A stretch of DNA of 24,274 bases from a virus: IMG/VR virus record IMGVR_UViG_3300032032_000901, positions 1 through 24,274 of that record. One strand, written 5' to 3'. Positions 191-23,254 of the stretch are shown piece by piece. How positions within the stretch are numbered: position 1 is the stretch's first letter; every line of letters begins with the position of its first letter. The notes beneath the pieces were generated by a model that saw only the letters and a list, made by a program, of their open reading frames with translations, had not been told where the DNA came from and did no database searches. A program made the position numbers and the translations under genes.

Positions 191-1474
191 ATGCAACAAA
201 TCTCAATCGAATCTTGTTTGGAAATGATGATAGGTTTGAGTGACAAACCAGTTAATCCGCCATTTATTGTATTAGATAAAGACAAAAAAATATTAACTGA
301 CATTGCCAAAAAAGTTTATAGAGGTACTGCTTTAACTGATAGACAGTATGCAACTGTAAAAAGAATCTTAAAAACTAGTTATTCTACTCAATTTAAAAAT
401 AGAGACATTGATATTCATGCATCATCAACTATATTACGTAAAACATTAAGACAAATAGACAGAAGTTCTTATATTAAAATTGGAAATTATAAAGAATTTG
501 TTTACGATCCTTTTAGTTATTATGCATATGAACCAAATCATAGAGTCCTTGTAATAAGGTTTCCTTTTAATGTTACATATAGTAAACTTATGGGAGAAGT
601 TAAAAAATGTTTTCCTTTTTATAGAACTCATAAACAAAAAGACAAAAACAAATATGTTCTTCCGTATAATGAACGTTTAGTTCATAAAGTAGTAGAGAAA
701 TTTAAAGGCAAAATAAAAGATATTGATCCAACATTATTGGAAGTTCATGAAAGATGTGAATACTTTTATGATAATAAACAAGAATTTCTACCAGGAATTT
801 ATGATTTCAAAATCAAAAATTGTTTACCAAAAATAGCTGAACACTATGTAAATAAGTTTGGGCAACCTAGTCCTAGTAACTTATTTTTATTTAAAGATAG
901 AAGAGAATATTTAGGATTAAAATATTTTAGTGGACTACATTTAGAACAATCGTTAGCCGATCAAGATGAGTTTACTAAAAAACTTGTTCAACGTAAAGCA
1001 TCTGTAGTTATTGTTGAAAAGAAAAAATGGGAATTAAAACAAGTAATAAAAACAATGTTTGATTTAAAAAGAATTCCTTTATTGGTAGTTTTACCAGTAT
1101 TTCCAAAAAAAGATCCTGCTGAATCTTTAGAAGCATCACATAAAATTTTAAAAGACTATGTGGACAATAAAGACATTTCGGTATTGTTTAGATTAGAAAA
1201 CATGGAATCTGGTATCAAGTTTAACGAATATGTTCGAGAAAATGGACTTAATAATAGTCTTGCAAATAATACAAAAATAGTGTACATTAATAATAAGAAG
1301 ATTCCAAAACCCTTATTAAGATTTAATTGGAAGCCTGAAGGCGTATTATGTCTTGATACTACAAGGAATTACAGTAAAGTAAATTCTTTTGAAGAGGAGT
1401 TCGACTTGGTTGTTCAATATGCTACTGAAGAACATAGTCCTTGGAATCCATATTTTGTTATGGAAAATATATGA
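191..1474 (+). CDS. Conserved T4-like phage protein upstream of uvsW, function unknown
   Basis: This is a 427-residue soluble protein. I chose ATG 191 over the in-frame TTG at 164 because the consensus promoter at 156-184 would place +1 exactly at 191, so the TTG would not be transcribed from it. The N-terminal part contains a lysine-rich stretch followed by LTDRQYATVKRIL, a pattern I associate with proteins found next to uvsW in marine T4-like phages. The C-terminal third alternates beta and alpha segments and could be a degenerate helicase-like or Rossmann-like domain, but there is no Walker A motif. The stop overlaps the uvsW start as ATGA (1471-1474), so the two are probably translationally coupled. 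A partner role with UvsW is inference only. Confidence 0.75.
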   Translation: MQQISIESCLEMMIGLSDKPVNPPFIVLDKDKKILTDIAKKVYRGTALTDRQYATVKRILKTSYSTQFKNRDIDIHASSTILRKTLRQIDRSSYIKIGNYKEFVYDPFSYYAYEPNHRVLVIRFPFNVTYSKLMGEVKKCFPFYRTHKQKDKNKYVLPYNERLVHKVVEKFKGKIKDIDPTLLEVHERCEYFYDNKQEFLPGIYDFKIKNCLPKIAEHYVNKFGQPSPSNLFLFKDRREYLGLKYFSGLHLEQSLADQDEFTKKLVQRKASVVIVEKKKWELKQVIKTMFDLKRIPLLVVLPVFPKKDPAESLEASHKILKDYVDNKDISVLFRLENMESGIKFNEYVRENGLNNSLANNTKIVYINNKKIPKPLLRFNWKPEGVLCLDTTRNYSKVNSFEEEFDLVVQYATEEHSPWNPYFVMENI

Positions 1475-2925
1475 GTTGTAAGATAGTAATTAATGATGAA
1501 GTCAATGTAAAAATTGAAGGGCTACCTGTTGATGTACGAAGAAAAATAGCAAATAGTTTAAAATGGGAAGTTCCATACGCAAGATACTTGCCTCAATATA
1601 AATTAGGAAGATGGGATGGTAAGATTGGTTTCTTTGGTTTAGGTGGTAGCGGTTTTGTTAATCATTTAGATAAAATTTTAGAATTACTTAATAAACAAGG
1701 TGTTGAAGTTGGCTCAATAGAAGATAAAAGAAAGAAATATGATTTAAAATTTCAGCCTATTGACAAAAATTATTTTGGAAATAAAACATGGCCCAAAGGT
1801 CACATTTGTGAAGGACAAGAAATTGTACTTCGTGATTATCAAGTAGATGTTGTTAATAATTTTATAAAGCAACCACAATCATTACAAGAAGTTGCCACTG
1901 GTGCAGGGAAAACAATTGTTACTGCTTGTTTATCTAGTTTATGTGAAAGACTAGGACGAACTGTTGTAATAGTACCCAATAAAAGTTTAGTTACACAAAC
2001 AGAAGAAGATTATATTAATGTAGGTCTAGACGTAGGAGTATACTTTGGTGATAGAAAAGAACTTGGAAAAACACACACAATTTGTACGTGGCAATCTTTA
2101 AATGTTTTAGATAAAAAATCAAAAGCTGGACAATCAACATTATCCTTAACTGAATTTTTAAGTGGTGTACAAACATTAATAATAGATGAAGTGCACCAAG
2201 CAAAAGCAGATGTTTTAAAAAAATTACTAACACATCATTTAAAAAATTCTCCAATAAGATGGGGATTAACAGGAACAATCCCAAAAGAACAATTTGAATT
2301 TCAAAGTTTATTAGTTGCTATAGGTCCTGTTATTAATCAAATATCTGCAAAAGAATTACAAGATAAAGGTATATTATCTAAATGTCACGTTAATGTAGTA
2401 CAATTAGTTGACACATTAGTACATAGAACATACCAAGAAGAATTAAGTTATTTGGTTACAACTCAAGATAGATTAGAATACATAGCAAAATTAATAGGCA
2501 AAATAAAGGAAACAGGCAACACACTTATATTAGTAGATAGATTAAAGGCAGGAGAAAAATTAGAACAAATAATTCCTAATAGTGTTTTTATTAAAGGCGA
2601 AACAAAATTGCAAGATAGAAAAGAACAATATGATCAAATTTCTAGTGCAAATAATAAAATAATAATTGCAACATATGGTGTTGCATCTATTGGAATTAAT
2701 ATACCTAGAATATTTAATTTAGTATTAATAGAGGCAGGTAAATCATTTATAAGGGTAATACAGTCAATAGGTCGTGGCATAAGAAAGGCAAAAGATAAAG
2801 ACTTTGTTCAAATATGGGACATAACATCTACTTGTAAGTTTGCTAAAAGGCATCTTACACGAAGAAAGAAATTTTATAAAGAGGCTAACTATCCATTTAC
2901 TGTAGAAAAAGTACAATGGAATTAG
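1471..2925 (+). CDS. uvsW: UvsW-like DNA/RNA helicase (superfamily 2)
   Basis: This is a 484-residue superfamily 2 helicase. Residues 1-110 match the UvsW N-terminal domain, including the stretch around LGRWDG. The Q/motif I area follows with ATGAGKT (about 142-148), then DEVH as motif II (239-242), LTGT as motif III (266-269) and QSIGRGIRKA as motif VI near the C-terminus. In T4, UvsW unwinds R-loops and branched DNA and helps switch from origin-dependent to recombination-dependent replication. The length is close to the family. ATG 1471 overlaps the preceding stop as ATGA. An in-frame TTG at 1441 lies inside the upstream gene and is less likely. Confidence 0.95.
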   Translation: MSCKIVINDEVNVKIEGLPVDVRRKIANSLKWEVPYARYLPQYKLGRWDGKIGFFGLGGSGFVNHLDKILELLNKQGVEVGSIEDKRKKYDLKFQPIDKNYFGNKTWPKGHICEGQEIVLRDYQVDVVNNFIKQPQSLQEVATGAGKTIVTACLSSLCERLGRTVVIVPNKSLVTQTEEDYINVGLDVGVYFGDRKELGKTHTICTWQSLNVLDKKSKAGQSTLSLTEFLSGVQTLIIDEVHQAKADVLKKLLTHHLKNSPIRWGLTGTIPKEQFEFQSLLVAIGPVINQISAKELQDKGILSKCHVNVVQLVDTLVHRTYQEELSYLVTTQDRLEYIAKLIGKIKETGNTLILVDRLKAGEKLEQIIPNSVFIKGETKLQDRKEQYDQISSANNKIIIATYGVASIGINIPRIFNLVLIEAGKSFIRVIQSIGRGIRKAKDKDFVQIWDITSTCKFAKRHLTRRKKFYKEANYPFTVEKVQWN

Positions 2926-7841: not shown

Positions 7842-7847
7842 GTATGC

Positions 7848-8831: not shown

Positions 8832-8941
8832 AAAAATTCTTTTCGTTCTTATTTTCTCCTATAACTAAATTTCTAGAACACAGAAAGTACAAGAAGAAAG
8901 TTAAAGAACTACAGAAAAGAGATCCATTTATATACAAATAA
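8819..8941 (+). CDS. Small conserved phage protein ending RDPFIYK
   Basis: It has 40 residues, with a hydrophobic N-terminus (FFSFLFSPITKFL), then a basic amphipathic helix and the end KRDPFIYK. I recall short proteins with this ending in other marine T4-like phages. AAGG lies upstream, and the start overlaps the primase end by 13 bases. It is likely membrane-associated through the N-terminal segment, which is inference. Confidence 0.65.
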   Translation: MVYIKKFFSFLFSPITKFLEHRKYKKKVKELQKRDPFIYK

Positions 8942-8942
8942 A

Positions 8943-11370: not shown

Positions 11371-11372
11371 TA

Positions 11373-11861
11373 ATGAAATTATATAAAAACAAAAGATCCA
11401 ACATACATAGACATGGCTTGTCTGCCTCTACTAATATTAAAAAAGGTCAAAGAATTATCCAGTATAAAGGAAAGAAAATTAGTCACACTAAAGCAGAAAC
11501 AGATCCAAAGTATGATAACGATAAAGAGATTTACTTGTTTAATTTAAACGAACAGTACGATCTTGATGGTGATTTTAAATTTAATACTGCTCGATTAATA
11601 AATCATTCCTGCAATCCTAACTGTGAAGTTTTTGATTATAACAGACAATTATGGATTTTTGCTATAAAGAATATTAAAAAAGATGAAGAGTTAACTTATG
11701 ATTATGGGTTTAGTTTTGATAAAACAGACTACAAACAATACCCTTGTAAGTGTGGATCATCTAATTGCGTAGGTTATATTGTTCGAGAGGGATCAAGGTG
11801 GCGAATAAGCCGCGAAGCGGTCATCCGCCAGAAAGTAAGCAGTCGCGAAGCGACGCGGTAG
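11373..11861 (+). CDS. SET-domain protein with post-SET cysteines (lysine methyltransferase-like)
   Basis: It has 162 residues. Residues 8-20 form the start of a SET fold, NHSCNPNC is at 77-84 and ELTYDYG at 106-112, both at the SAM and substrate site, and the post-SET cysteines are C125, C127 and C132. The protein domain should end near residue 138. The last 24 residues, including ISREAVIRQKVSSREATR, are encoded by the GC-rich palindrome cluster 11799-11854 and look like an accidental extension. SET proteins add methyl groups to lysines. In a phage the target could be a host protein or a virion protein. It starts two bases after the helicase stop and converges on the amidinotransferase gene. 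Confidence 0.85.
   Translation: MKLYKNKRSNIHRHGLSASTNIKKGQRIIQYKGKKISHTKAETDPKYDNDKEIYLFNLNEQYDLDGDFKFNTARLINHSCNPNCEVFDYNRQLWIFAIKNIKKDEELTYDYGFSFDKTDYKQYPCKCGSSNCVGYIVREGSRWRISREAVIRQKVSSREATR
11799..11854. repeat. GC-rich palindrome cluster with two GAA-loop hairpins
   Basis: In AT-rich surroundings this 56-base stretch is strikingly GC-rich. CCGC-GAA-GCGG (11810-11820) sits inside an outer stem TGGCG (11799-11803)/CGCCA (11826-11830). A second hairpin, GTCGC-GAA-GCGAC (11842-11854), follows. CGCGAAGCG occurs twice, at 11811-11819 and 11844-11852. It lies between converging genes and could act as a two-way transcription barrier, although no T tract follows closely. It could instead be an inserted palindromic element. 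It forms the end of the SET gene. Confidence 0.7.
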
Positions 11862-11878
11862 CATTCGGTAAACAGATT

Positions 11879-12943
11879 TTATATGATTTTTCTTTTGACG
11901 CCTCTACGTTTAACGTCTAATGTACTACAATGTATTCCACCATCCCAATACAAATAATGGCGTTGCTCCACTACGTGGCAATCAATGTGTAAGGATTTTA
12001 GTTTTTCAAATAGTTTAGGTATGTGTCTTGCAAACACAATATTGTTTCTATCTAATATTAATACGTTGAGATCAAAGCAAACTTCTTGATTATACCCTCT
12101 CCAATTCTCTAAATACTTGTCTAACCAAGCAACATCCATTTTATCTCGTGCTTTAGCATAGTCTTGAATATATCTATTCATATTTAATGGGGGCAAACAA
12201 TCACTTACATCTAATAACTTTTTGTTATGCAAACACTTAGGCAACCAATCCATACCAGCATGAATAACTGTTTCATCATCTACCATAATAAAGCCATGGT
12301 CAATATGTCCAAATTCTTTAACCCGTGTGCCTTCGTTAGTAATAAATCTATATTCAGGCAGTTCACGTTTACACCACTCTAATCCAGTTTGACTTCCAGG
12401 ACCTCGTGTATTAATAATAAATGCATCGCCCGCCTTAAACATTGTAGCCATATGCCACAACACTCTATCAGATAATTTTTCTACATACGTTTTATCATTC
12501 ATAAACCATTCGTCTGTAGTGTTTAAATCTATAAGCATAGGGGCAGGTTGACTTACCCAACGGTGTCCTTCACGGAATAATTTTTCAAATATTTTATAAT
12601 AGCTAATAGCATCAAAGTATCTGTCTGTATAACTTGTATAGGCTTGGACAATAGTATTACCCATAACCATATACTGATCTCTTGGTACGATTGGTGCAAT
12701 TGGTACATCGACTTTAAACTGTGGCATTTTTATGGCATCATAGTTGTATACTGTAGGACGAGTTACTTCAATACCTCCTTTTGTTAGGAAGTCTGCTAAC
12801 GCATCTAAATCCTGTTTAGTTTCTTCTAGGATATGATTAAATTGATTAATGTTGCCTTTAGTCAACAAATGATCCACGTCGCCAGGAGCATACGTGTCTC
12901 CTACGATTACAGATTCTAATGGATCATATTCTGTGTAGATCAT
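11879..12943 (-). CDS. Amidinotransferase (GATM/StrB family)
   Basis: It has 354 residues. The family signature residues are present: FGHIDHGFIM with H213 and D215, and WDGGIHCSTLDVKRRG with the nucleophile cysteine C339. RGPGSQTGLEW (180-190) is the other conserved region. The family (glycine amidinotransferase, inosamine-phosphate amidinotransferase) moves an amidino group from arginine to an amine acceptor, giving ornithine. The acceptor here is unknown; glycine is possible. It is the last gene of the minus operon and overlaps the preceding gene by four bases (ATGA). The stop faces the SET gene 17 bases away. Confidence 0.88.
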   Translation of the reverse strand: MIYTEYDPLESVIVGDTYAPGDVDHLLTKGNINQFNHILEETKQDLDALADFLTKGGIEVTRPTVYNYDAIKMPQFKVDVPIAPIVPRDQYMVMGNTIVQAYTSYTDRYFDAISYYKIFEKLFREGHRWVSQPAPMLIDLNTTDEWFMNDKTYVEKLSDRVLWHMATMFKAGDAFIINTRGPGSQTGLEWCKRELPEYRFITNEGTRVKEFGHIDHGFIMVDDETVIHAGMDWLPKCLHNKKLLDVSDCLPPLNMNRYIQDYAKARDKMDVAWLDKYLENWRGYNQEVCFDLNVLILDRNNIVFARHIPKLFEKLKSLHIDCHVVEQRHYLYWDGGIHCSTLDVKRRGVKRKII

Positions 12944-13476
12944 ATAACATATCCTTTGTTTATAAAAATTTGTATGCTGTGTCGCACTACATCTTTACTT
13001 GTAATTTGTGTTATTGCGTGAGGAAAGTCTTGTGGATTTAATACTAATCTATTTGCTATAGGTTCTACAAACTCTCCTGTAGTACTAGTCCAACGATTTT
13101 TCCACATAAAGAATCCGCCATCATTTGGATCCCATTCTGCGTTCATAAAAAACGTTATGCCACAATAGTCTACGGCATCTGTTTTCCAATCTGATAAACG
13201 ATCACAATGAAAATTTGAATAATAAGGCGCTCTTGTTACATGATATCTTACGTCAAAGTCTGCTTTGTCCCAATCTATTTTACAGTACTCTTGTTCTTCT
13301 AGTTCATTCATAAACATAGTTTTTGCTATGCCTTCTACACGATATAACTTAACATTGTCTAATCCTTTATGATCGCTTTCGTCATGAGGAATTTCCATAG
13401 GAGACTTTTCATTTTGTAATGCATCTACAAAGTTTTTATAAACTTCTTCGCTAAGAAAGTTATCTACTATTTTCAT
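12940..13476 (-). CDS. 2-oxoglutarate/Fe(II) oxygenase (prolyl 4-hydroxylase-like)
   Basis: It has 178 residues. The iron triad is visible: H90 and D92 in FHCDRLSDW, and H153 in DFPHAITQ. R165 in VVRHSIQIF would hold 2-oxoglutarate. The double-stranded beta-helix between them contains ITFFMNAEWDPNDGGFF, typical of the P4H/PKHD class. The small size fits phage members that hydroxylate proteins, nucleotides or small molecules; the substrate is unknown. ATGA overlaps at both ends tie it to the aminotransferase upstream and the amidinotransferase downstream. Confidence 0.82.
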   Translation of the reverse strand: MKIVDNFLSEEVYKNFVDALQNEKSPMEIPHDESDHKGLDNVKLYRVEGIAKTMFMNELEEQEYCKIDWDKADFDVRYHVTRAPYYSNFHCDRLSDWKTDAVDYCGITFFMNAEWDPNDGGFFMWKNRWTSTTGEFVEPIANRLVLNPQDFPHAITQITSKDVVRHSIQIFINKGYVI

Positions 13477-14567
13477 TTTATTTGTTCCTTTAAAACATCA
13501 AAGTATTCATCTGTAGCACTAATAGGGATAATAAAAAACTGTCTATTATCTCCTCGTTTAACATCAAAGATTAATCCAAAGTGTCCTACAATGTCATATC
13601 CAGCTTCTTTAAAAATAAATGTTGCCCGTTCTTTCAATGTGTAATGTAATTCAAATGGCATTTCTTCGTGCAACAAGTCTATATATTTTAGGGTACTGAG
13701 GATGCCTGCTTGGCTAAAATTGTATGTAAATCCATGTTCCCAATCAAAATTATCAGGCAACACTTCATCTATTCGTGGGCCATACAAAGTAGCACTCAAC
13801 GGAAAAAAGCCTGCTGATATGGCTTTGCCCATCGTGAATATATCGGGCTTGACAGGCAATTTATACCATCCGACAAAACTGCCTGTCTTGCCTCCCCCTA
13901 TAAAGATGTCATCAAGTATTAACACAACTCCTTGTTTTTGAAGTTGAGTTAACTTGCTCCAAAATTGTTCAGAGTTGGGTTGCAACGTCTGACTATAAGA
14001 ACAAGTTTCTACAATGATACACATCACTTCGCTCCAATCGATGCTGGAGATATCGAAGTCCTTTTTTAATCTGATGACTTGGTCATACGGTTTAAGCGTA
14101 TAAAAAGGATCACCAAACAAACCGTCTCCCAGGTTGTAATTTAAAAATGTACTACCGTGGTAACTGTTTTCAAAGCACACAATCTTTGTGCGTTTGTTTT
14201 GTCCTACAATTTTTTGATATGCTGAAGCTAATTTAATTGCTCCTTCGTTAGCGTCACTGCCACTTAATGCAAATATACTTTTATATCCACACATTTGAAA
14301 CAGTTGATCCGCTAACATATAACTGGAATCATTCAAATATAAATTTTCGTTTCTTACAATACTTTCTGCTATTTCAGGTTTAGCTTTCATATTATTGTGT
14401 ACGTAATCTAATATGTCTGGTCTATTAAACCCTAATAAAAAACAACCATAGTGTAGTAAAGGATCAATAATCTTTTTATTATCTTTAATATAGCCATACT
14501 GCCAATGCGGTTTGGCTACATTAGTCAGTTGTTGGGTACCCGGTATTAATCCTTTTAAATGTTTCAC
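13473..14567 (-). CDS. Class III aminotransferase (PLP-dependent)
   Basis: It has 364 residues and starts at GTG 14567. It carries SGSDANEGAIKLA (102-114), YHG (136-138) for the cofactor ring, LDDIFIGGGKTGSF with D220, and FTMGKAISAG with the PLP lysine K248. It resembles class III transaminases (omega-amino acid, glutamate-1-semialdehyde, alanine-glyoxylate type 2). It is shorter than most members (about 420-450), with both the N-terminal and C-terminal ends trimmed. The substrate cannot be read from the sequence. One base separates it from the gene upstream, and it overlaps the oxygenase downstream by four. Confidence 0.88.
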   Translation of the reverse strand: MKHLKGLIPGTQQLTNVAKPHWQYGYIKDNKKIIDPLLHYGCFLLGFNRPDILDYVHNNMKAKPEIAESIVRNENLYLNDSSYMLADQLFQMCGYKSIFALSGSDANEGAIKLASAYQKIVGQNKRTKIVCFENSYHGSTFLNYNLGDGLFGDPFYTLKPYDQVIRLKKDFDISSIDWSEVMCIIVETCSYSQTLQPNSEQFWSKLTQLQKQGVVLILDDIFIGGGKTGSFVGWYKLPVKPDIFTMGKAISAGFFPLSATLYGPRIDEVLPDNFDWEHGFTYNFSQAGILSTLKYIDLLHEEMPFELHYTLKERATFIFKEAGYDIVGHFGLIFDVKRGDNRQFFIIPISATDEYFDVLKEQIK

Positions 14568-14568
14568 T

Positions 14569-15105
14569 CTATTCTATTCTTAACTCTATTTGATCATATG
14601 TTATATTATTATCGTTTTTAAATGCGTGTTTAGATTCCAATTTTATTATAATTGGTTGTTGAACAATTGCAGGGTGAGATAATAATACTTTTTTAAAATC
14701 TCCTTTGTGAAATTCTTTATCTAACATAGATTCTTGATCATTAATTTGCAATTTAACATAATAATCTTCTACTAGATCTTCACTACCTCCTACAAAGTTT
14801 TTTCTATCAAATGTTGTACTAATAACATTAGTAGCTGGATCTATTACAAATCCAATAATAACTTTTTCAGAACTACTAGTCCATTTTATATCATAATCTA
14901 ATACCAATTTACTTGGCATTTCGTTTGACATTTCCACTTGTTTGCTGTCTGTTATTGGCAACATTTCTTCTGCATCATTTATATTTTTGAATACAACATT
15001 GTTATTAAATGAAATATTCAAATTGTTTTCATACCCGTGTTGAGCTTTGGAAAAATATCTTTTTCCATCTTCTTTAGGGCACGTAAGTATTAAAGTTTTA
15101 TTCAT
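14569..15105 (-). CDS. Beta-rich protein of unknown function
   Basis: This 178-residue, beta-rich, acidic protein has no signal peptide or membrane segment. A good ribosome site (AAGGAGG) lies within the 3' end of the upstream gene, just before ATG 15105, and the two genes overlap by eight bases. I do not recognise the family. It resembles in size and style the gene at 15709, and both alternate with oxygenase-like genes, so they may be substrates or partners of those enzymes; this is inference. Confidence 0.7.
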   Translation of the reverse strand: MNKTLILTCPKEDGKRYFSKAQHGYENNLNISFNNNVVFKNINDAEEMLPITDSKQVEMSNEMPSKLVLDYDIKWTSSSEKVIIGFVIDPATNVISTTFDRKNFVGGSEDLVEDYYVKLQINDQESMLDKEFHKGDFKKVLLSHPAIVQQPIIIKLESKHAFKNDNNITYDQIELRIE

Positions 15106-15712
15106 AAACTACCTCCTTAAAAAGTTCTAGTGCTTTATTAAAACTTAAATGTTCTCCTGTATCCTTATTTAATATTGTAAATGATAAGGTCCATCTACTT
15201 TGACCAGCATTAGGATTATATGTATCGTGCAACTGACCTACGTTCATTAAGCTAGGTTTATCTATAACTGCTTCATGTACTAGCTCTAAATCTTCGTTAT
15301 TAGCACTATAACATTTATAACAGTCTATATCAGGCACGACACCAGCTTCTTCTAATCCTTTATTAACTTCTGTCGTATCATGTACAATTTCTTTCAACTT
15401 ACTTTCGTCTTTGACTTTCCACCAACGGGTAACACTATTACTAGGTCCCCAAGTAAAATTAATTTTACAAGCATCATTTACGTCTGGTTTAATTGTCATA
15501 TCATTATGAACTGGAATACTGCCGTTTGTTTTTGTAAAAAATCCTTCTACTACATTACTAACTTTTAAATTATATTTGCTTAACCAATCTACAAAATCTT
15601 GTTGTGCAACATCATTACCCATATACGTTATAAAATCATTTTCTAAATCTTTTTCAAACATTTTAGGTTTGTTTACTTGTTTAATATTTAAATATCTATG
15701 ATACTTGTTCAT
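15098..15712 (-). CDS. Putative 2-oxoglutarate/Fe(II) oxygenase-like protein
   Basis: It has 204 residues from ATG 15712, which overlaps the preceding stop as ATGA; a longer start at 15724 is possible but less natural. IPVHNDMTIKP supplies H69 and D71 (H-x-D), and VGQLHDTYN with H162 followed by SRWTLSFTI with R173 matches the distal His and the 2-oxoglutarate-binding Arg. The beta-strand pattern between them fits a cupin-type core. The identification rests on this spacing only, so it is less certain than for 12940-13476. Confidence 0.6.
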   Translation of the reverse strand: MNKYHRYLNIKQVNKPKMFEKDLENDFITYMGNDVAQQDFVDWLSKYNLKVSNVVEGFFTKTNGSIPVHNDMTIKPDVNDACKINFTWGPSNSVTRWWKVKDESKLKEIVHDTTEVNKGLEEAGVVPDIDCYKCYSANNEDLELVHEAVIDKPSLMNVGQLHDTYNPNAGQSRWTLSFTILNKDTGEHLSFNKALELFKEVVYE

Positions 15713-16278
15713 TTTATTGTCCATCTAACACATTGTATAAATCTAGCAAATACATTTTCTTCAGCATAGCCATATTCTTCCATTTCAAATAGTAAAGGAG
15801 TATTACCTTTCCATTTAAAAGTATTTGTAACTTTATAAAGTTCTTCTGCTTTTATTTCTTGATTAACAATAAGTGCTTCACCATTTAATTTAAAATGAAA
15901 CTTTTCACAACCTATTCCAAACTTATTGTTAAAATAATTAAATTCATTTGTAGGTGCATCTATTAAATTAGTAAAAATTATTTTCCATTCATCATCTGAT
16001 ACTTTAGAAAGTTCAATGGTTGCAGTTTGTTTTATAAACTTATCTTTCCAAATTTGTTTTCCTGCTATTTTTAATATGTTATGTTCTTTTATATTAATAT
16101 TTGCTGTTCTAGTTATGGATCCTTTTTCCATTTGTTCTTTAGATAATTCTAATGTTGACCAACACTCTTCATCGTTCCAATATGTGTCCATAACATCTCG
16201 TAAGTCATTACTAGCAATTGAAGAATTAACTTCATCATCCGATCTTAATACAGGATAATAATCAAATTGTAATATCAT
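15709..16278 (-). CDS. Beta-rich protein of unknown function
   Basis: This 189-residue, strand-rich protein (ATIELSKVSDDEWKIIFTN, FHFKLNGEALIVNQE) has no clear catalytic motif. Its start is coupled to the stop of the gene upstream (TAATG at 16278) and its stop overlaps the next start as ATGA. Like 14569-15105, it sits between oxygenase-like genes. No family recognised. Confidence 0.7.
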   Translation of the reverse strand: MILQFDYYPVLRSDDEVNSSIASNDLRDVMDTYWNDEECWSTLELSKEQMEKGSITRTANINIKEHNILKIAGKQIWKDKFIKQTATIELSKVSDDEWKIIFTNLIDAPTNEFNYFNNKFGIGCEKFHFKLNGEALIVNQEIKAEELYKVTNTFKWKGNTPLLFEMEEYGYAEENVFARFIQCVRWTIK

Positions 16279-16793
16279 TATTCTGCTTGTCCTATAAAAT
16301 GATATATGTATTTTATTTGTTTTCCAATATTAAATCCACAATGTTCTGCATCTATTTTATCCCATTGATATACAGCACCTTGTTCTTCCATATGATAACA
16401 ATCTTGTTCAACAATTAATGTACTACCCATACAAGGATTTGAAATATGACAATGATATCTAACAAAATTATCTTTTGGTACTTCACCTATTACTTCATTT
16501 ATTTCTTTATCATCAATATGAGGTGGAACACAATATCCTGTTTTCATTTCGCTAATCCAACACATAACAGGTAATACATTTAACCAATTACCAAATTCTT
16601 TATTAACATTACCAAAACCATCATGAAAGGTTTCAAAATTTATTATATTGGCAACATTCTTAAATGCCGCTTCAATTTCTTTTTTATCTTGATAATTTGA
16701 AGGAGTTGTCTCGTATTGACGTTTTACACCGTCAAGGTTTTTGATTATCTGATTCCAATCGACTTGGAAAAACTTTCCAATATATTTCTTCAT
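16278..16793 (-). CDS. Putative cupin-fold oxygenase-like protein (Asp/Asn hydroxylase-like)
   Basis: It has 171 residues. VPPHIDDKE gives H92 and D94. FVRYHCHISNP (H114, H116) and IDAEHCGFNIG (H151) follow, with WDKI between them, the order expected for an aspartyl/asparaginyl beta-hydroxylase-like jelly roll. The second metal ligand could be H116 or D94; I cannot decide. It is the first gene of the minus operon. A late-type element CATAAATA (minus strand, 16812-16805) lies just upstream, leaving only 11 bases to the ATG. Confidence 0.55.
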   Translation of the reverse strand: MKKYIGKFFQVDWNQIIKNLDGVKRQYETTPSNYQDKKEIEAAFKNVANIINFETFHDGFGNVNKEFGNWLNVLPVMCWISEMKTGYCVPPHIDDKEINEVIGEVPKDNFVRYHCHISNPCMGSTLIVEQDCYHMEEQGAVYQWDKIDAEHCGFNIGKQIKYIYHFIGQAE

Positions 16794-16804
16794 AGGGGTA
16801 AAAA

Positions 16805-16812
16805 TATTTATG
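16805..16812 (-). promoter_or_regulatory. T4-like late promoter CATAAATA for the seven-gene minus operon
   Basis: The plus strand reads TATTTATG, i.e. CATAAATA on the minus strand, seven of eight bases of the T4 late element. The following bases are T-rich, as in T4 late promoters. The ATG of the first gene is 11 bases downstream, so the predicted leader is very short. Confidence 0.7.
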
Positions 16813-16925
16813 AAATGGTGTTTTTGAAATTGTAAGAAAAGGCTACGTTTTGGTGGGGGTTGGTACGCATATTAAAACATAGACGAGACCCTTGTAGTGA
16901 CGTGTATGAGCTTATAAAGTGCTAA

Positions 16926-16964
16926 TATAATGGGCTTTAGAGTTTAATCTAATAACCCATTATA
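16926..16964. terminator. Long intergenic hairpin, possible terminator or structured RNA element
   Basis: TATAATGGG (16926-16934) pairs perfectly with CCCATTATA (16956-16964). Inside it TTAGA (16937-16941) pairs with TCTAA (16948-16952). It lies between the small gene ending at 17006 and the promoter at 16812, so it could end the upstream minus-strand transcript. There is no strong T run on either strand. Confidence 0.5.
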
Positions 16965-17005
16965 ATTCTATATGTCGTGAATATTTTTAGTTTTGGATAT
17001 TTTGG

Positions 17006-17113
17006 TTAGAATATAACCCACAGTACTACTACTGCTACAACGACAATTCCTATCTTCTGTACGTTACTTCCTTTAGTCCAAAGTCCTGTAACTTTACTAA
17101 TCATATTATTCAT
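17006..17113 (-). CDS. Tiny single-pass membrane protein, function unknown
   Basis: It has 35 residues. The N-terminal half is polar/basic (MISKVTGLWTKGSNVQK), and the C-terminal part is one hydrophobic segment (IGIVVVAVVVLWVIF). A ribosome site AAGGAG lies before the ATG, and a late-type element GATAAATA is at 17148-17141 (minus strand). The good translation signals make it credible despite the size. Confidence 0.65.
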   Translation of the reverse strand: MNNMISKVTGLWTKGSNVQKIGIVVVAVVVLWVIF

Positions 17114-17140
17114 AATTGTCTCCTTGTCTTAATTAAACAA

Positions 17141-17148
17141 TATTTATC
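17141..17148 (-). promoter_or_regulatory. T4-like late promoter GATAAATA
   Basis: The minus-strand GATAAATA matches seven of eight bases of the T4 late element, with 27 bases to the ATG at 17113 and a ribosome site in between. Confidence 0.65.
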
Positions 17149-17166
17149 TAATATTAGTAGTATACA

Positions 17167-17361
17167 TTAGGAACCGACTGATTGCCAAGGCAAAGGTTTA
17201 CCATTTTCATCGCGTGCCATTTCGCCCGTAGCTTCAATTACGGCACACATTCGTTTCTTTCCACCAAAATTTACGAAGAGGCAAGGCTTAACTTTTTGCC
17301 CTTTATGAGTTCTAAAGTGTTGTTCTTGTTTTTCCGGTTGAATACCTCTAGGACGGCCCAT
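17167..17361 (-). CDS. Small basic protein, function unknown
   Basis: This 64-residue protein contains RTHKGQKVKPCLFVNFGGKKRMCAV near the middle; the rest is polar. It follows the 17368 gene by six bases, so both probably share the late promoter at 17612. No family recognised. Confidence 0.65.
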   Translation of the reverse strand: MGRPRGIQPEKQEQHFRTHKGQKVKPCLFVNFGGKKRMCAVIEATGEMARDENGKPLPWQSVGS

Positions 17362-17367
17362 GGGACT

Positions 17368-17574
17368 CTAGTCTCTTTTTCCCATTGGAAGTGTTTGGGT
17401 TTTAGAAGAGTCAGTTCCTTTTTTACTTGTCCAGTATACATTAACTTCTGGCGCTTTGGAATGCATTTGATAAGACTTCACAGCTCTTTTATAGCCTAAA
17501 GATTCTATTACTTTTGTATCTTCACCTTCTGGTAGGATTGGATCTACAAAAGTATATTTTCTCATTTTTTTCAT
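17368..17574 (-). CDS. Small protein, function unknown
   Basis: It has 68 residues starting MKKMRKYTFVDPILPEG, with a body containing GYKRAVKSYQMHSK and a polar C-terminus. An AAAGGA site precedes the ATG. It lies 30 bases after the start of the perfect late element TATAAATA. No family recognised. Confidence 0.65.
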   Translation of the reverse strand: MKKMRKYTFVDPILPEGEDTKVIESLGYKRAVKSYQMHSKAPEVNVYWTSKKGTDSSKTQTLPMGKRD

Positions 17575-17604
17575 ATTCTTTATTCCTTTCTTGTGTCACT
17601 TTCA

Positions 17605-17612
17605 TATTTATA
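17605..17612 (-). promoter_or_regulatory. Perfect T4 late promoter TATAAATA
   Basis: The plus strand reads TATTTATA, so the minus strand is TATAAATA, the exact T4 late -10 element. It is the best copy in the window and anchors the identification of the degenerate copies. It serves the 17574 to 17167 pair. Confidence 0.8.
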
Positions 17613-17660
17613 TGTAAAAACAAAAACAAGTCTAAACATCTCTAAGAAACATTTTTAAGG

Positions 17661-17668
17661 TTAAATAC
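17661..17668 (+). promoter_or_regulatory. Weak late-like element TTAAATAC upstream of the protease operon
   Basis: TTAAATAC lies eight bases before ATG 17676 and keeps the TAAATAC core seen at 7001 and 24208. It differs from the T4 consensus at two positions or more, so it is a weak candidate. I saw no better promoter for this operon. Confidence 0.25.
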
Positions 17669-17675
17669 ACTTATA

Positions 17676-17756
17676 ATGAGTGTATTAGCAATATTTTTCA
17701 CGCTAGTAGTACTAGCAGTAGTTGGCGCACTTATTGTTGTGGCAATGGAGAAGTAA
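17676..17756 (+). CDS. Tiny membrane protein ahead of the protease gene
   Basis: It has 26 residues, nearly all hydrophobic (one transmembrane segment), ending MEK. AAGG at 17657-17660 lies well upstream. The stop overlaps the protease start as TAATG (17754-17758), a coupling repeated in the later small genes of this operon. It could be a membrane anchor or regulator of the protease, which is inference. Confidence 0.55.
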   Translation: MSVLAIFFTLVVLAVVGALIVVAMEK

Positions 17757-18955
17757 TGTTAGCAAGAATAGTATTCATAATCAGTTTTATATTTGTAACT
17801 ACTGCAACTGCAGGTACGTTTGATTATAAAAAACAAGACTGGAAATGGGAATCTACTTTTGATAGTATAGTAGTTGTTACTGGTCAAAAAAGTGGCGAAT
17901 CAATGACATTTCTGGGTCCGGACGACTCACCTAAAGGACCATTCGATAAAGACCCTTATAAAGATTTTTTTGACGAACGTGGAGAAAAACCAGAAATTAT
18001 TGTTCCACCTAAAAGTTCTTTAGGAACAGGTTTCTTTATTAACGATATTCATATAGTAACAAACTATCACGTTGTTAAAAACATGGACACTTTTACAATA
18101 TACACATGGAGTTTTCCATTTGCAGTAAAAGAAGTTGTGCTTATAGGATACGACGAAACAGTTGATATTGCTGTATTAGAAGTTAAAGAAAAAGTAAAAC
18201 ATAGTCATCTTGATTGGGCAACAAAAAATCCTATGATAGGAGATGATGTTTATGCATTAGGGCACGGTTTAAATTTAATTTGGTCATTTACAAAAGGCAT
18301 ATTAAGTTATGACTATAGACCAAATCCATTGGACAGTTTTGTTCATTACTATCAAACTGATGCTGTAATAAATCCAGGAAACTCTGGGGGAGTCTTACTT
18401 AATGAACAAGGAGAAGTTATAGGTGTTAATACTCTTTTAATTTCCCCAACAGCTTATTATGTAGGTTATGGTTATTCTATTCCTTGGAAATTAGCAAAAA
18501 GAGTTGCAGAACAAATTATTCAAGTAGGTCATCATACTAAACCTAGCATAGGAATACAAATGGGAATAATAGATGACAAAGAATTATTTGTACAATTAAC
18601 TGGTAGAGGCATAGAACATTTTTTAGAAATTAAAGAAGTTATGCCAGATTCGGCGGCAATGAGATTTGGATTAATGGCTGGTGATATAATAGTTTCTATG
18701 GACAATGCTCCTATTAAAGTAGTACCTGATGTAATAGAAGTGTTATGGTCAAAAATGCCTGGAGACTCTGTAGACTTTGTAGTTTATAGAAATTATGAAT
18801 ACATAAGCCTTTCTGTAATATTAGGACGAGTAGAAGTAGAAGTTACAGAAATGATAGATGTTGAAGAACTATATGATGAAGAAGAAGAATTAGAAGAAGA
18901 ATTAGAAGAGCAAGAAGAAATACTAGTACCACAAGAGGAAAAAACTACATGGTAA
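17756..18955 (+). CDS. HtrA/DegP-like serine protease with PDZ domain
   Basis: It has 399 residues. A signal peptide (residues 1 to about 20, ending ATAG) sends it to the periplasm. The trypsin-like domain has H105 in VTNYHVV, D137 in ETVDIAV, and S210 in INPGNSGG, the HtrA catalytic triad and oxyanion loop. One PDZ domain spans about 265-355. The last 40 residues are almost all acidic, with repeated Glu, unlike the usual C-terminus of DegP. Bacterial HtrA proteases clear misfolded periplasmic proteins. A phage copy could process envelope or virion proteins, or counter stress during late infection; the roles are inference. Confidence 0.9.
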   Translation: MLARIVFIISFIFVTTATAGTFDYKKQDWKWESTFDSIVVVTGQKSGESMTFLGPDDSPKGPFDKDPYKDFFDERGEKPEIIVPPKSSLGTGFFINDIHIVTNYHVVKNMDTFTIYTWSFPFAVKEVVLIGYDETVDIAVLEVKEKVKHSHLDWATKNPMIGDDVYALGHGLNLIWSFTKGILSYDYRPNPLDSFVHYYQTDAVINPGNSGGVLLNEQGEVIGVNTLLISPTAYYVGYGYSIPWKLAKRVAEQIIQVGHHTKPSIGIQMGIIDDKELFVQLTGRGIEHFLEIKEVMPDSAAMRFGLMAGDIIVSMDNAPIKVVPDVIEVLWSKMPGDSVDFVVYRNYEYISLSVILGRVEVEVTEMIDVEELYDEEEELEEELEEQEEILVPQEEKTTW

Positions 18956-20023: not shown

Positions 20024-20191
20024 ATGGTATTAAAGATTCTTACTAAAAACATACAAACAGTAGGACGCCAAAAGAGAGAGCAGAAAGAAATAGAAGAATT
20101 CGCGGCAAAAATAGCACAACAACAAGACACAGGAGTAATAAATTATGGCAAAGAAAAAAGTAAAAGAACATTACGTGAAAAAACTTCTTAA
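20024..20191 (+). CDS. Small basic, helical protein, function unknown
   Basis: It has 55 residues, highly charged and probably helical (KREQKEIEEFAAKIAQQQD). It starts at the predicted +1 of the promoter above and overlaps the next gene by 47 bases in another frame. The leaderless arrangement supports this start; the true 3' end may be a by-product of the overlap. Confidence 0.5.
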   Translation: MVLKILTKNIQTVGRQKREQKEIEEFAAKIAQQQDTGVINYGKEKSKRTLREKTS

Positions 20192-20402
20192 ATCTTTAGA
20201 TCTTAAACGTAATAAAAAAGCAACACACAAAGTTATTAATATTAATAACTACGAAAGATTTTGGGAAGATTCTACACCTAGAGGTCATCAAATTAGAATC
20301 GTATGTCAAGATAATTCAACATTACATATAAATTTAAATTGGCCTAAAGGTTACAATCCTAGACTACACAAAGTAGATCCTAAAAGATGGAATATATCTT
20401 AA
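20145..20402 (+). CDS. Small basic protein, function unknown
   Basis: It has 85 residues, with a lysine-rich N-terminus (MAKKKVKEHYVKKLLKSL) and a beta-containing C-terminal half with RIVCQDNSTLHINLNWPKGYN. GGAG precedes the ATG. It ends eight bases before the glutamine synthetase start, so it is part of the metabolic operon. Not recognised. Confidence 0.7.
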   Translation: MAKKKVKEHYVKKLLKSLDLKRNKKATHKVININNYERFWEDSTPRGHQIRIVCQDNSTLHINLNWPKGYNPRLHKVDPKRWNIS

Positions 20403-20409
20403 TGAGTGT

Positions 20410-21414
20410 ATGCAAAAAACAAAACTAGAATACGTTTGGCTAGACGGTTACAAGCCTGAACCTACCTTACGATCAAAAGTAAAAGTAATAGATAGAATGG
20501 TAACATCCATTGAGGAAGTTCCTCTATGGGGCTTCGATGGATCTAGCACACAACAAGCAAAAGGTTCCGAATCAGATTGCATATTGCAACCTGTAAAATT
20601 ATTTAAAGGTCCTTTTGAATCGGACTGGTTAGTATTATGTGAAGTACTAAACAAAGATAACACAACACACGAATCTAATTCTAGAAGTCAAATTGTTTCA
20701 TCTACTGAAAAAGATTATTGGTTTGGCTTTGAACAAGAATATACATTTATGATGGGTGAATTTCCTTTAGAGTGGCCTATTGAAGGTGAACCTAAAGAAC
20801 AAGGAGATTATTATTGTGGAGTAGGTGCATCTAACATAGGTAAAACAGGAAGAAGAATAATGTTTGAGCACGTTGATAATTGTATAACAGCAGGTGTATC
20901 TATACACGGAACAAACGCAGAAGTAATGTTAGGACAATGGGAATATCAAGTGTTTGGTAAAGGTGGAAAAAATGCGGCTGATAATGCCTGGATGGCACGT
21001 TATATACTTTATAGAACAGCAGAAAAATATGGAATAGATATTAACATCGAACCTAAACCTATTAAAGGAGATTGGAACGGTAATGGTATGCATACTAATT
21101 TTTCAAATTCTGCATTAAGAGATCAAGGTGGTAAAGGAGTTATTACTAACATTTGTGAAAAAATGAAACCTTTACACAAATCACATATTGCAGTATATGG
21201 TAGCAAAAATGATGAACGCTTAACAGGATTACACGAAACTCAACATATTGACAAATTTAGTTATGGAGAGTATGATAGAGGTGCAAGTATTAGAGTTCCT
21301 ATGATAACAATTAATAATAATTACAAAGGTTATTTAGAAGATCGAAGACCAGCCGGCAATGCTGATCCTTACAAAGTCGTTAACCGTATTATAACAACAA
21401 TAGAACATCAATAA
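20410..21414 (+). CDS. glnII: Glutamine synthetase, type II (GSII)
   Basis: This 334-residue enzyme shows the type II (eukaryote-like) layout: LWGFDGSST (39-47), FGFEQEYT (105-112), GQWEYQ (175-180), GDWNGNGMHTN (220-230), RGASIRVP (290-297) and LEDRRPAGNADPY (309-321). These build the metal, ATP and glutamate sites. Length is slightly below the usual 340-370. It makes glutamine from glutamate, ammonium and ATP. Glutamine is the nitrogen donor for purines, CTP and carbamoyl phosphate, all wanted for phage DNA synthesis. The stop overlaps the isocitrate lyase start (TAATG). It has no tail that would suggest regulatory adenylylation, which is a type I trait. Confidence 0.95.
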   Translation: MQKTKLEYVWLDGYKPEPTLRSKVKVIDRMVTSIEEVPLWGFDGSSTQQAKGSESDCILQPVKLFKGPFESDWLVLCEVLNKDNTTHESNSRSQIVSSTEKDYWFGFEQEYTFMMGEFPLEWPIEGEPKEQGDYYCGVGASNIGKTGRRIMFEHVDNCITAGVSIHGTNAEVMLGQWEYQVFGKGGKNAADNAWMARYILYRTAEKYGIDINIEPKPIKGDWNGNGMHTNFSNSALRDQGGKGVITNICEKMKPLHKSHIAVYGSKNDERLTGLHETQHIDKFSYGEYDRGASIRVPMITINNNYKGYLEDRRPAGNADPYKVVNRIITTIEHQ

Positions 21415-22682
21415 TGGATTCAATAATGAAAAATGTTCTCCCTTTAATGGATTGGAATTCTAATAGATGGGACGGCATTATCAGACCTTACTCTCAGAAA
21501 AGCGTAGAAAAATTACGTGGTACTGCTAACATTCAATATACTCTTGCTGAAAGAGGATCAAGAAACCTTTGGTATAAACTAAAAGAATTACCTTACGTAA
21601 GTTCCTTGGGTGCTCTTACAGGTAACCAAGCACTACAACAAGCCAAAGCAGGATTAGATGCTGTATATTTGTCAGGGTGGCAAGTGGCGGCAGATGCAAA
21701 TACAACAGACGAAATGTATCCAGACCAGTCATTATATAATACTGAAAGTGTTCCTCGCATACTTAAAAAAATTAATAATACATTTATTCGTGCAGATCAA
21801 ATTCAACATATGGAAGGTAAAGAGAACATAGATTATTTTTTACCTATCGTAGCAGATGCTGAATCAGGATTTGGTGGTGTATTGAATACACACGAAGTAT
21901 TCAAACATATGATTAGAGAAGGTGCATCAGGAGTACACTTAGAAGATCAATTGTCTTCAGCAAAAAAATGTGGACACATGGGTGGAAAAGTTTTAGTACC
22001 TACTAGCGAAATGATTGAAAAACTTGTAGCGGCTAGACTTGCCGCGGACATTATGAAAGTTCCATTAGTAATAATTGCAAGAACAGATTCACTTGCTGGT
22101 GCTTTAATTAGAAGTGATCACGACGAAGTAGATCAAAAATTTATAACAGGTGAACGAACTGCTGAAGGATTCTTTAGAGTAAAAGCTGGAATGGATCAAG
22201 CAGTTGCTCGTGGACTTGCATATGCTCCATATAGTGATTTAGTATGGATGGAAACTAGTAACCCAGACATCGGAGAAGCTAAAGAATTTTGTATAGAAGT
22301 ACGTAAAAAATTTCCAAATAAGATGTTTGCATACAATTGTTCCCCGTCATTTAATTGGAAAGCTAAACTAAATGACAAACAAATAAGAAACTTTAAAGAC
22401 GAATTAGGAGAGATTGGTTGTAAATTTCAATTTATTACACTTGCAGGATTTCACGCATTGAATCATAGTATGTTTGATTTAGCTAGTAAATATAAAGAAA
22501 CAGGCATGACTGCTTTCGTTGAACTACAACAAAAAGAGTTTGCGGCGCAGGCACAAGGATTTACAGCAGTTAAACATCAAAGAGAAGTTGGTGCAGGATA
22601 CTTTGATGAAGTATCAAAACTAGTTACAGGCAGTAGTACGTTAAGTGCTTTAGAAGGATCAACTGAAGAAGAGCAATTTTAA
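21414..22682 (+). CDS. aceA: Isocitrate lyase
   Basis: It has 422 residues, full length against E. coli AceA (434). Catalytic KKCGH sits at 184-188 (C186) with the following MGGKVLVPT. DAESGFGG (148-155), YNCSPSFNWK and QFITLAGFHALNHSMFDL are conserved, and the C-terminus GSTEEEQF is nearly identical to that of the bacterial enzyme. It splits isocitrate to succinate and glyoxylate, the first step of the glyoxylate shunt. No malate synthase is in the window. ATG 21414 (TAATG with glnII) is more natural than ATG 21426. I know of no common phage copy, so it deserves attention as an auxiliary metabolic gene. Confidence 0.96.
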   Translation: MDSIMKNVLPLMDWNSNRWDGIIRPYSQKSVEKLRGTANIQYTLAERGSRNLWYKLKELPYVSSLGALTGNQALQQAKAGLDAVYLSGWQVAADANTTDEMYPDQSLYNTESVPRILKKINNTFIRADQIQHMEGKENIDYFLPIVADAESGFGGVLNTHEVFKHMIREGASGVHLEDQLSSAKKCGHMGGKVLVPTSEMIEKLVAARLAADIMKVPLVIIARTDSLAGALIRSDHDEVDQKFITGERTAEGFFRVKAGMDQAVARGLAYAPYSDLVWMETSNPDIGEAKEFCIEVRKKFPNKMFAYNCSPSFNWKAKLNDKQIRNFKDELGEIGCKFQFITLAGFHALNHSMFDLASKYKETGMTAFVELQQKEFAAQAQGFTAVKHQREVGAGYFDEVSKLVTGSSTLSALEGSTEEEQF

Positions 22683-23038: not shown

Positions 23039-23254
23039 ATGCCAGCAGATAAACCAAAAACAAAACGACCTTATACTAAAGTAAGAATGGTTCCTGAAGA
23101 TTCTAAAATGAAGGATCACGCATTTTATTATTATGCATTTAAACCTGGTAAGGGTGAAAAGAAAAATATGAAATTAAGAATGCGAAAGTATGATCCAGTT
23201 ACCAAAAAACATATTTGGTGGGTCGAGAAAAAATTACCACCTCACGCTCCTTAA
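23039..23254 (+). CDS. rpmG: Ribosomal protein L33-like (bL33)
   Basis: It has 71 residues. From residue 28, AFYYYAFKPGKGEKKNMKL and MRKYDPVTKKHIWWVEKKLP align with bacterial L33 (FYTTTKN...[23 protein letters not shown] in E. coli). The core KYDPVxxKH is present. It is the cysteine-free form. The first 25 residues are an extra, basic, proline-rich extension. L33 is a small 50S subunit protein near the E site. A phage copy could replace the host's and bias translation, which is inference from other phage ribosomal proteins. It is the last gene of the metabolic operon. Confidence 0.75.
   Translation: MPADKPKTKRPYTKVRMVPEDSKMKDHAFYYYAFKPGKGEKKNMKLRMRKYDPVTKKHIWWVEKKLPPHAP

What the first reader, a model, noticed from the sequence alone, without database searches (positions are those of the whole stretch)
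21414..22682. Full-length isocitrate lyase in a T4-like phage
The gene carries KKCGH and the C-terminal GSTEEEQF and is near the full length of bacterial AceA, so it looks active. It lies in a phage operon behind an early promoter. Isocitrate lyase is not part of the usual phage metabolic set I know. Diverting isocitrate to glyoxylate and succinate would save carbon or feed glycine synthesis.
Basis: partly seen in the sequence, partly recalled or inferred. Interest (0 to 1): 0.85.

Follow-up and report, generated by a model that had tools for sequence, protein, structure and literature searches.

The report
Phage isocitrate lyase beside glutamine synthetase
An uncultured phage carries an intact gene for isocitrate lyase next to one for glutamine synthetase, and related viral contigs keep the same enzyme among purine genes, which suggests, but does not prove, that the phage uses it to make nucleotide building blocks rather than to run the textbook glyoxylate cycle.

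Summary
In detail: ORF 21414-22682 is a full-length isocitrate lyase (ICL; NCBIfam 690 bits, cut-off 562) with intact catalytic positions and dN/dS 0.03-0.09. It is genuine phage DNA: three other viral contigs carry it at 85-92% (one only in part) near phage replication genes, and relatives show an empty site (GS-bL33 without ICL). The early promoter is unsupported (26 sites, 26.1 expected). Viral ICL is already in print (2013, 2017, 2023). New, as far as my searches reached: the window's ICL falls in a 26-row clade of viral contigs plus two virus-like MAG contigs; 16 of the 26 have purine synthesis, salvage or uptake genes within 5 kb, and in one 110-kb phage contig ICL lies between purC and purF of a large purine gene set. 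Malate synthase was found in 0 of 32 viral ICL records. In the window ICL overlaps a type-II-like glutamine synthetase. Best reading: ICL yields glyoxylate (towards glycine) and succinate (towards aspartate), GS yields glutamine, inputs of purine synthesis. Against it: the window's own subclade shows no purine gene in its fragments, GS is in only 2 of 47 ICL records, and nothing was assayed.

The parts
20145..20402 (+). ORF of 85 aa just upstream of GS, same strand
   Evidence: no Pfam family over cut-off
20410..21414 (+). glutamine synthetase, type-II-like, 334 aa; its stop overlaps the ICL start (TAATG)
   Evidence: Pfam Gln-synt_C 52 bits and Gln-synt_N 40.7 bits, both over cut-off; NCBIfam GlnII 381.8 bits, below the cut-off of 500; PDB 4bax 328 bits; junction
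21414..22682 (+). isocitrate lyase (AceA type), 422 aa
22688..23023 (+). DUF6552 protein, 111 aa, between ICL and bL33
   Evidence: Pfam PF20189, 48.3 bits, cut-off 27
23039..23254 (+). ribosomal protein bL33 homologue, 71 aa; directly after ICL in G002, within about 250 bases of ICL on the other strand in G003, directly after GS in L098/L099
   Evidence: Pfam PF00471, 27.6 bits, cut-off 25
1441..2925 (+). UvsW-type helicase
   Evidence: phrog_16 252.7 bits; 53.7% to phage Phosso
7848..8831 (+). phage DNA primase
   Evidence: phrog_47 133.5 bits
9907..11370 (+). DnaB-type replicative helicase (phage)
   Evidence: phrog_19 225.8 bits; 52.0% to PA5oct

Best explanation
The gene is a working phage-borne isocitrate lyase, an auxiliary metabolic gene that comes and goes among phages as a cassette. 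It splits the host's isocitrate into glyoxylate and succinate without loss of CO2. A host aminotransferase turns glyoxylate into glycine, which PurD needs; succinate runs through fumarate and oxaloacetate to aspartate, which PurC and the AMP branch need. The coupled phage glutamine synthetase makes glutamine, which PurF, PurL/PurQ and GuaA need. Together they supply amino-acid inputs of purine synthesis for phage DNA. Shown: an intact ICL under purifying selection, phage context, overlap with GS, no malate synthase found in the viral records searched, purine genes around ICL in related viral contigs. Inferred: enzyme activity, flux, the transamination step, the host and habitat, and that the window's phage uses ICL as its relatives with purine genes are thought to.
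For: ICL identity and residues; dN/dS 0.092, 0.042, 0.029 among window, G002 and G003. The window falls in a 26-row clade, SH-aLRT 100: window, viral L016-L038, MAG contigs L175 and L176, with L175 identical to viral L024. Within 5 kb, 14 of 80 viral ICL loci and 2 of 2 of these MAG contigs match a set of phage purine synthesis, salvage and uptake proteins, against 0 of 78 cellular ICL loci and 1 of 80 viral GS loci; within 3 kb the figures are the same. Independent family models on 25 ICL and 25 GS records: IMPDH/GMP reductase 8 and 0, SAICAR synthetase 5 (4 over cut-off) and 0. In G006: purC, ICL, purF, purD, guaA, purM, then purE, guaC, purS-like, purL, purQ, purB, purN; AICAR formyltransferase in G005, which also has phage DNA polymerase and clamp loader. 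Malate synthase in 0 of 32 ICL records. GS-ICL overlap TAATG.
Against: G001, G002 and G003, the window's own subclade, show no PF01259 or PF00478 gene. GS was found in only 2 of 47 ICL records, one of them the window's own phage. None of the 56 loci L039-L094 has a purine match within 5 kb. Four of the 14 matching viral loci (L027, L029, L032, L034) have only phosphoribosyltransferase or PnrA-type matches, that is salvage or uptake, and GMP reductase works towards IMP by recycling, not de novo. The purine loci are related contigs, so Fisher values overstate independence; the queries came from these loci. Most records are fragments, so missing malate synthase is weak evidence, and a host may supply it. 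IMP cyclohydrolase, purK, purA and guaB were not seen among the proteins scanned. No phage enzyme from glyoxylate to glycine was identified.
Confidence: 0.55

Rival explanations
1. Glyoxylate shunt: the phage ICL adds or boosts the first step and host malate synthase completes the bypass, saving carbon and refilling C4 acids during infection.
For: This is the reading given for viral aceA/aceB in PMC4053976 (passages) and PMC5332604 (section 17). In SAR11 malate synthase is common in all subclades, while ICL is mosaic within subclade IIIa (PMC10030771, passages); whether SAR11 is the host is unknown.
Against: Malate synthase in 0 of 32 viral ICL records, including the complete 156-kb C48C1 record and contigs of 251, 320 and 337 kb. 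ICL lies among purine genes in many relatives.
Confidence: 0.3
2. The ICL fold has shifted to another substrate, such as 2-methylisocitrate, or to a regulatory role.
For: The viral clade has a long stem branch (0.67), and apart from the two virus-like MAG contigs no cellular ICL above 65% was seen.
Against: All 23 active-site positions checked are identical in 26 of 26 clade rows and 78 of 78 cellular rows. The isocitrate lyase equivalog cut-off is passed, while methylisocitrate lyase models score 93.4 and 81.3 bits against cut-offs of 354.4 and 353.
Confidence: 0.08
3. Chimaeric contig or host DNA: a bacterial ICL misassembled into a phage contig.
For: Some other hits of the viral scan may be bacterial, for example L045, which groups among Bacillaceae. 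GC of ICL (0.359) and GS (0.342) is above that of the first 20 kb of the window (0.308).
Against: Four viral contigs besides the window (L002-L005) carry this ICL at 85-100% identity, L005 only its last 136 residues; L005 has UvsX and a DnaB-type helicase about 1.8-4.5 kb from it; L098/L099 show the empty site.
Confidence: 0.02

Closest known systems
Viral aceA/aceB of the Pacific Ocean Virome (PMC4053976; passages read)
   Same: Isocitrate lyase assigned to marine viruses, with roles proposed in central carbon metabolism.
   Different: There it was listed with malate synthase as a glyoxylate shunt; here it sits in a phage contig, overlaps GS, and no malate synthase was found.
aceBA operon of TARA_ERS478052_N000008, 179 kb, with homologues of three T4-like structural genes (PMC5332604; section 17 read)
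   Same: ICL in a large viral genome with T4-like genes.
   Different: Malate synthase lies in the same operon and the authors proposed a proviral phase. The window has GS-ICL-DUF6552-bL33, and the 40-kb contig G001 of the same phage has no malate synthase.
ICL in viruses linked to Pelagibacter and Woesiales under the Ross Ice Shelf (PMC10721903; section 9 read)
   Same: Marine viral ICL; the same section reports a glutamine synthetase in viruses linked to SAR86.
   Different: In that section GS and ICL are reported in different viruses and no purine context is described.
Phage C48C1 (OQ984149), 156 kb
   Same: Phage genome with a T4-type portal and an ICL gene annotated as hypothetical protein.
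   Different: 51-53% identical, outside the 26-row clade (where it is a long branch), no GS, malate synthase, PF01259 or PF00478 match.
Phage purine genes (huge phages, PMC7162821; one passage seen)
   Same: Phages with de novo purine genes are known.
   Different: The word isocitrate does not occur in the main text held. A search for ICL with purine biosynthesis, phage and auxiliary metabolic found no paper.

Membership tests
Isocitrate lyase (AceA, NCBIfam PRK15063 equivalog) | Score over the curated equivalog cut-off across nearly the whole model | tested here: met
   690.1 bits, cut-off 562; positions 16-428 of 430
Isocitrate lyase (AceA, NCBIfam PRK15063 equivalog) | KKCGH loop and substrate/Mg positions (which residues these are is recalled; conservation was tested) | tested here: met
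   23 positions identical in 26 of 26 clade rows and 78 of 78 cellular rows
[quoted passage not shown]
   No assay possible
Glyoxylate shunt module (aceA + aceB) | Malate synthase encoded with ICL | tested here: not met
   PF01274 in 0 of 32 viral ICL records, G001 included; control rings in 6 of 14 known genomes. Most records are fragments and the host may supply the enzyme.
Glutamine synthetase GlnII (NCBIfam NF041605 equivalog) | Score over the curated cut-off | tested here: not met
   381.8 bits, cut-off 500; the G002 copy 401.7, also below. So called type-II-like, not filed as GlnII.
Glutamine synthetase GlnII (NCBIfam NF041605 equivalog) | Both GS domains and closest solved relatives of the short (type-II) form | tested here: met
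   Both domains over Pfam cut-offs. The 16 best PDB chains are 344-423 aa with E up to 2.5e-82; the other 22 are 442-489 aa with E of 7e-7 or weaker (the type-II label is recalled)
T4-type tailed phage | UvsW-type helicase, primase and DnaB-type helicase of phage families | tested here: met
   UvsW-family hits alone are not phage-specific (control 14 of 14)
T4-type tailed phage | T4-type portal protein (PF07230) | tested here: inconclusive
   No match in G001-G003, contigs of 33-40 kb; match in 4 of 47 ICL records
Auxiliary metabolic gene cassette | Presence and absence at one site in related phage genomes | tested here: met
   GS-TAATG-ICL-TAATG-bL33 in G002, GS-TAATG-bL33 in L098/L099

The most novel reading that the evidence does not exclude
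A lineage of phages, probably marine, has turned isocitrate lyase from a carbon-saving enzyme into the front end of a viral purine factory: phage ICL yields the carbon of glycine and aspartate from one TCA intermediate, phage GS yields glutamine, and in the fullest case the phage also encodes most steps from PRPP towards IMP plus GMP synthase. In hosts that depend on outside glycine, such as SAR11 subclade I isolates, this would lift a hard limit on phage DNA synthesis.
Probability: 0.4. Interest if true: 0.75.

Novelty: new variant of a known kind. Interest (0 to 1): 0.58.

Why it matters
Viral isocitrate lyase has been read as a glyoxylate shunt that saves or reroutes host carbon. If phages use it to make glycine and aspartate for purines, models that count it as a shunt mislabel its role, and infection of glycine-limited bacteria would have a concrete metabolic bottleneck that isotope tracing can test. 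The clean presence and absence of the gene between GS and bL33 also gives a natural pair of phage types to compare.

Tried and rejected
Chimaera or host contamination: rejected through other viral contigs, UvsX and helicase near ICL in L005, and the empty site.

Early promoter: not supported, 26 sites, 26.1 expected.

Glycine riboswitch or other RNA element near ICL: at gathering thresholds window, L009, L012, L013 and L006 gave 9 matches, all tRNA. The purine-rich loci were not scanned for RNAs.

Glycine use through the window's own amidinotransferase-like and class-III aminotransferase genes (11879-14567): considered, but they lie on the other strand and have no blastp match in G002 or G003; the aminotransferase's best PDB hit is acetylornithine aminotransferase. 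Left as a lead.

UvsW family (phrog_16) as a phage marker: it rings in 9 of 32 ICL records but also in 14 of 14 control cellular genomes, so it was not used alone.

SAR11 as donor: not shown. Of 398 genomes from the phylum of L177 (Pseudomonadota), 96 matched at E up to 1e-100, none above 65%; no SAR11 genome was identified by name.

Habitat: no call showed the sampling site of the window or of the IMG/VR contigs. 'Marine' is inference.

Tree rows: of 162 trimmed ICL sequences 91 were used: window, C48C1, viral L016-L060, L175-L200 and the cellular rows L201-L254 whose number divides by three. Left out: L015 (same phage as the window), viral L061-L094 and the other cellular rows. Quick tree, no bootstrap. 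The output flags long branches (C48C1, L249, L252, L039) and says the join of L249 with the viral clade may be false.

Structure prediction was not run: solved ICLs are close enough.

Papers: PMC9723757 and PMC12993515 match aceA only as the company name ACEA. PMC7029224 (pelagimyophages) has none of isocitrate, glutamine synthetase, purine, glyoxylate or glycine in its main text. Not every paper listed was opened.

Full report
What is there. The ORF at 21414-22682 (+) encodes 422 aa. It passes the NCBIfam isocitrate lyase equivalog cut-off (690.1 bits, cut-off 562) over almost the whole model; methylisocitrate lyase models score 93.4 and 81.3 bits against cut-offs of 354.4 and 353. The best solved relative is 7cmx; 1igw (the E. 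coli enzyme, recalled) aligns over residues 12-422 with small gaps. In an alignment of 26 clade rows and 78 cellular rows, the 23 active-site positions checked, K184-K185-C186-G187-H188 among them, are identical in every row; of three C-terminal positions, 417 and 418 are constant in the clade and in 77 of 78 cellular rows (one gap), and 419 varies (which residues matter is recalled). Pairwise dN/dS among window, G002 and G003 is 0.092, 0.042 and 0.029; for GS, window against G002, it is 0.236. The gene is intact and selected.

The operon. Upstream is a type-II-like glutamine synthetase (20410-21414) that clears Pfam cut-offs but not the GlnII equivalog cut-off (381.8, cut-off 500); its closest solved relative is 4bax. 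The GS stop and the ICL start overlap as TAATG. Downstream are a DUF6552 protein and a ribosomal protein bL33 homologue. The promoter scan gives no support: 26 sigma-70-like sites, 26.1 expected.

It is a phage. The window is a 24,274-base virus record. UvsW-type helicase, primase and DnaB-type helicase match phage families; the best phage hits for UvsW and DnaB include PA5oct, Phosso and Atu_ph07, genomes of 287-490 kb, at 47-54% identity. There is no megablast match among 50,697 phage records. A first viral scan found four loci: L002, the same phage in a 40,178-base contig (proteins 99-100% identical), L003 (G002, 92%), L004 (G003, 85%) and L005 (91% over the last 136 residues). G002 and G003 share the replication block with the window at 46-62% for the two helicases and the primase, while ICL is 92% and 85% identical. 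L005 has UvsX and a DnaB-type helicase about 1.8-4.5 kb from ICL.

Empty site. In L098 and L099 (contigs of 30,952 and 72,662 bases with the same stretch), GS is 88% and bL33 89% identical to those of G002, and GS runs straight into bL33 through TAATG; in G002 the order is GS-TAATG-ICL-TAATG-bL33. ICL is a cassette that is present or absent at one point of the same phage operon.

How widespread. PHROGs has no family that matches this ICL. Of 50,697 phage records 9 match; four are bacterial-length or short unannotated Salmonella and Escherichia records at 59-62%, four are Acinetobacter 'phage' contigs at 30-33%, and one is C48C1, a 156-kb phage record. In IMG/VR a scan with four phage ICLs gave 523 contigs that encode a relative, of which the best 80 were kept. 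That set is mixed: a T4-type portal is in 4 of 47 ICL records tested (C48C1 and contigs of 337, 320 and 251 kb), and tail-sheath-stabiliser and head-closure genes lie near ICL in G020 and G013, but some rows, such as L045 among Bacillaceae, may be bacterial. In a tree of 91 of 162 sequences the window falls in a clade of 26 rows, SH-aLRT 100: the window, L016-L038 and two MAG contigs, L175 being identical to viral L024. Other phage ICLs (C48C1; the jumbo contigs L040 and L041; L043, L044 and L054) fall elsewhere, so phages seem to have gained ICL more than once.

Purine context. In G006 (and G005, nearly identical) transcription order is purC, ICL, purF, purD, guaA, purM, three ORFs of 202, 127 and 72 aa, purE, guaC, a ClpP-like head protease, purS-like, a 2OG oxygenase, purL, purQ, purB, then purN. 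guaC is a GMP reductase over cut-off. purC is below its NCBIfam cut-off (74.3 bits, cut-off 189.9) but over Pfam's; purS is weak and below cut-off. G005 also encodes an AICAR formyltransferase over cut-off, matching only the formyltransferase part of purH, and an OMP decarboxylase. I saw no purK, purA, guaB or IMP cyclohydrolase among the proteins scanned. G005 has a phage DNA polymerase (638 bits), clamp loader (265 bits), Hsp20 and tryptophan halogenase. G015 has purL, purQ, purM, purE, guaC, purC and parts of purD around ICL by clustering. Other clade members have an IMPDH/GMP-reductase-family gene, phosphoribosyltransferases and a PnrA-type substrate-binding protein; the xanthine phosphoribosyltransferase name is below its cut-off (42.8, cut-off 138).

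Controls. Within 5 kb, 14 of 80 viral ICL loci (all between L018 and L035) and 2 of 2 MAG contigs matched the purine set; 0 of 78 cellular ICL loci (which had only 3 kb on each side) and 1 of 80 viral GS loci (one weak guaC match, 28.7%) did; within 3 kb the counts are the same. Four of the 14 (L027, L029, L032, L034) have only phosphoribosyltransferase or PnrA-type matches. The queries came from these loci, which favours them. With independent family models on 25 ICL records and 25 GS records: PF00478 in 8 and 0, PF01259 in 5 (4 over cut-off) and 0, either one in 10 and 0, Fisher 0.0006. The records are related, so this is not a true probability. Against the reading: none of L039-L094 matched, the window's own subclade (G001-G003) has neither family, and GS is in only 2 of 47 ICL records.

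No shunt partner found. Malate synthase (PF01274) was found in 0 of 32 ICL records, G001 and the complete C48C1 among them; the control rang in 6 of 14 known genomes. In SAR11, malate synthase is common in all subclades, ICL is mosaic within subclade IIIa, and subclade I isolates rely on outside glycine and serine (PMC10030771, passages); glcB, for malate synthase, is under a glycine riboswitch (PMC5069720, passages). These facts would matter only if SAR11 were the host, which is unknown. The window's GC of 27-35% per kilobase fits many hosts.

Mechanism. Purine synthesis takes glycine (PurD), glutamine (PurF, PurL/PurQ, GuaA) and aspartate (PurC and the AMP branch), with fumarate released by PurB (established pathway knowledge). 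ICL makes glyoxylate, one transamination from glycine, and succinate, which returns to oxaloacetate and aspartate. With GS this covers the amino-acid inputs. The inference from relatives to the window rests on clade membership and on the GS link, not on purine genes in the window.

Prior art. Viral ICL is in print: PMC4053976 (passages), PMC5332604 (section 17), PMC10721903 (section 9), PMC12783922 (passage). Searches for ICL with auxiliary metabolic gene (12 papers), with phage genome and glyoxylate, with viral, aceA and auxiliary metabolic, with purine biosynthesis, phage and auxiliary metabolic and with phage, glutamine synthetase and AMG (PMC9270025 seen in the listing only) gave no report of ICL in a phage purine operon or of a GS-ICL operon in what I read; several listed papers were not opened. 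The library holds open-licence papers only.

Noticed in passing
L266 (G006) 3257-18610; L263-L265 and L283-L285 (G005): A 109,853-base phage contig with most de novo purine genes plus guaA, guaC and pyrF.
   Followed up: partly
window 23039-23254: bL33 ribosomal protein homologue, near GS or ICL in G002, G003, L098 and L099; viral bL33 is known (PMC6375957, passages).
   Followed up: partly
window 11879-14567 (-): Amidinotransferase-like protein (PDB HsvA, inosamine-phosphate amidinotransferase, SxtG, AGAT), a possible 2OG oxygenase (below Pfam cut-off) and a class-III aminotransferase in a tight row; no match in G002 or G003.
   Followed up: partly
window 11373-11861 (+): SET-domain protein (PF00856, 83.4 bits) in a phage.
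   Followed up: no
window 8943-9965 (+): NodU/Nol-type carbamoyltransferase matching only the N-terminal domain (340 aa); L025 and L037 carry a 481-482 aa version as the third gene after ICL.
   Followed up: no
window 17756-18955 (+): HtrA-like protease with trypsin-like and PDZ domains (phrog_11383, 176.5 bits).
   Followed up: no
L175 (Chloroflexi MAG NAT137) and L176 (Saprospiraceae MAG UBA7328): Contigs binned as bacterial whose ICL and neighbours group with viral contigs; likely mis-binned phage contigs.
   Followed up: partly
L270 12546-16018: Upstream of ICL in G011: an NMT1-type binding protein and an arylsulfotransferase-like protein, with two ORFs between them that look like an ABC ATPase and a permease by eye (not searched); an unusual uptake set for a phage.
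   Followed up: no
phage records LR756501, LR756502, LR745206: Huge uncultured phage genomes (635-735 kb) with a GS at 46-53% identity to the window's GS.
   Followed up: no
window 21414-22682 and G002: Between window and G002, dS is 0.50 for ICL but 0.88 for the adjoining GS, a hint that ICL may have moved between these phages on its own.
   Followed up: no
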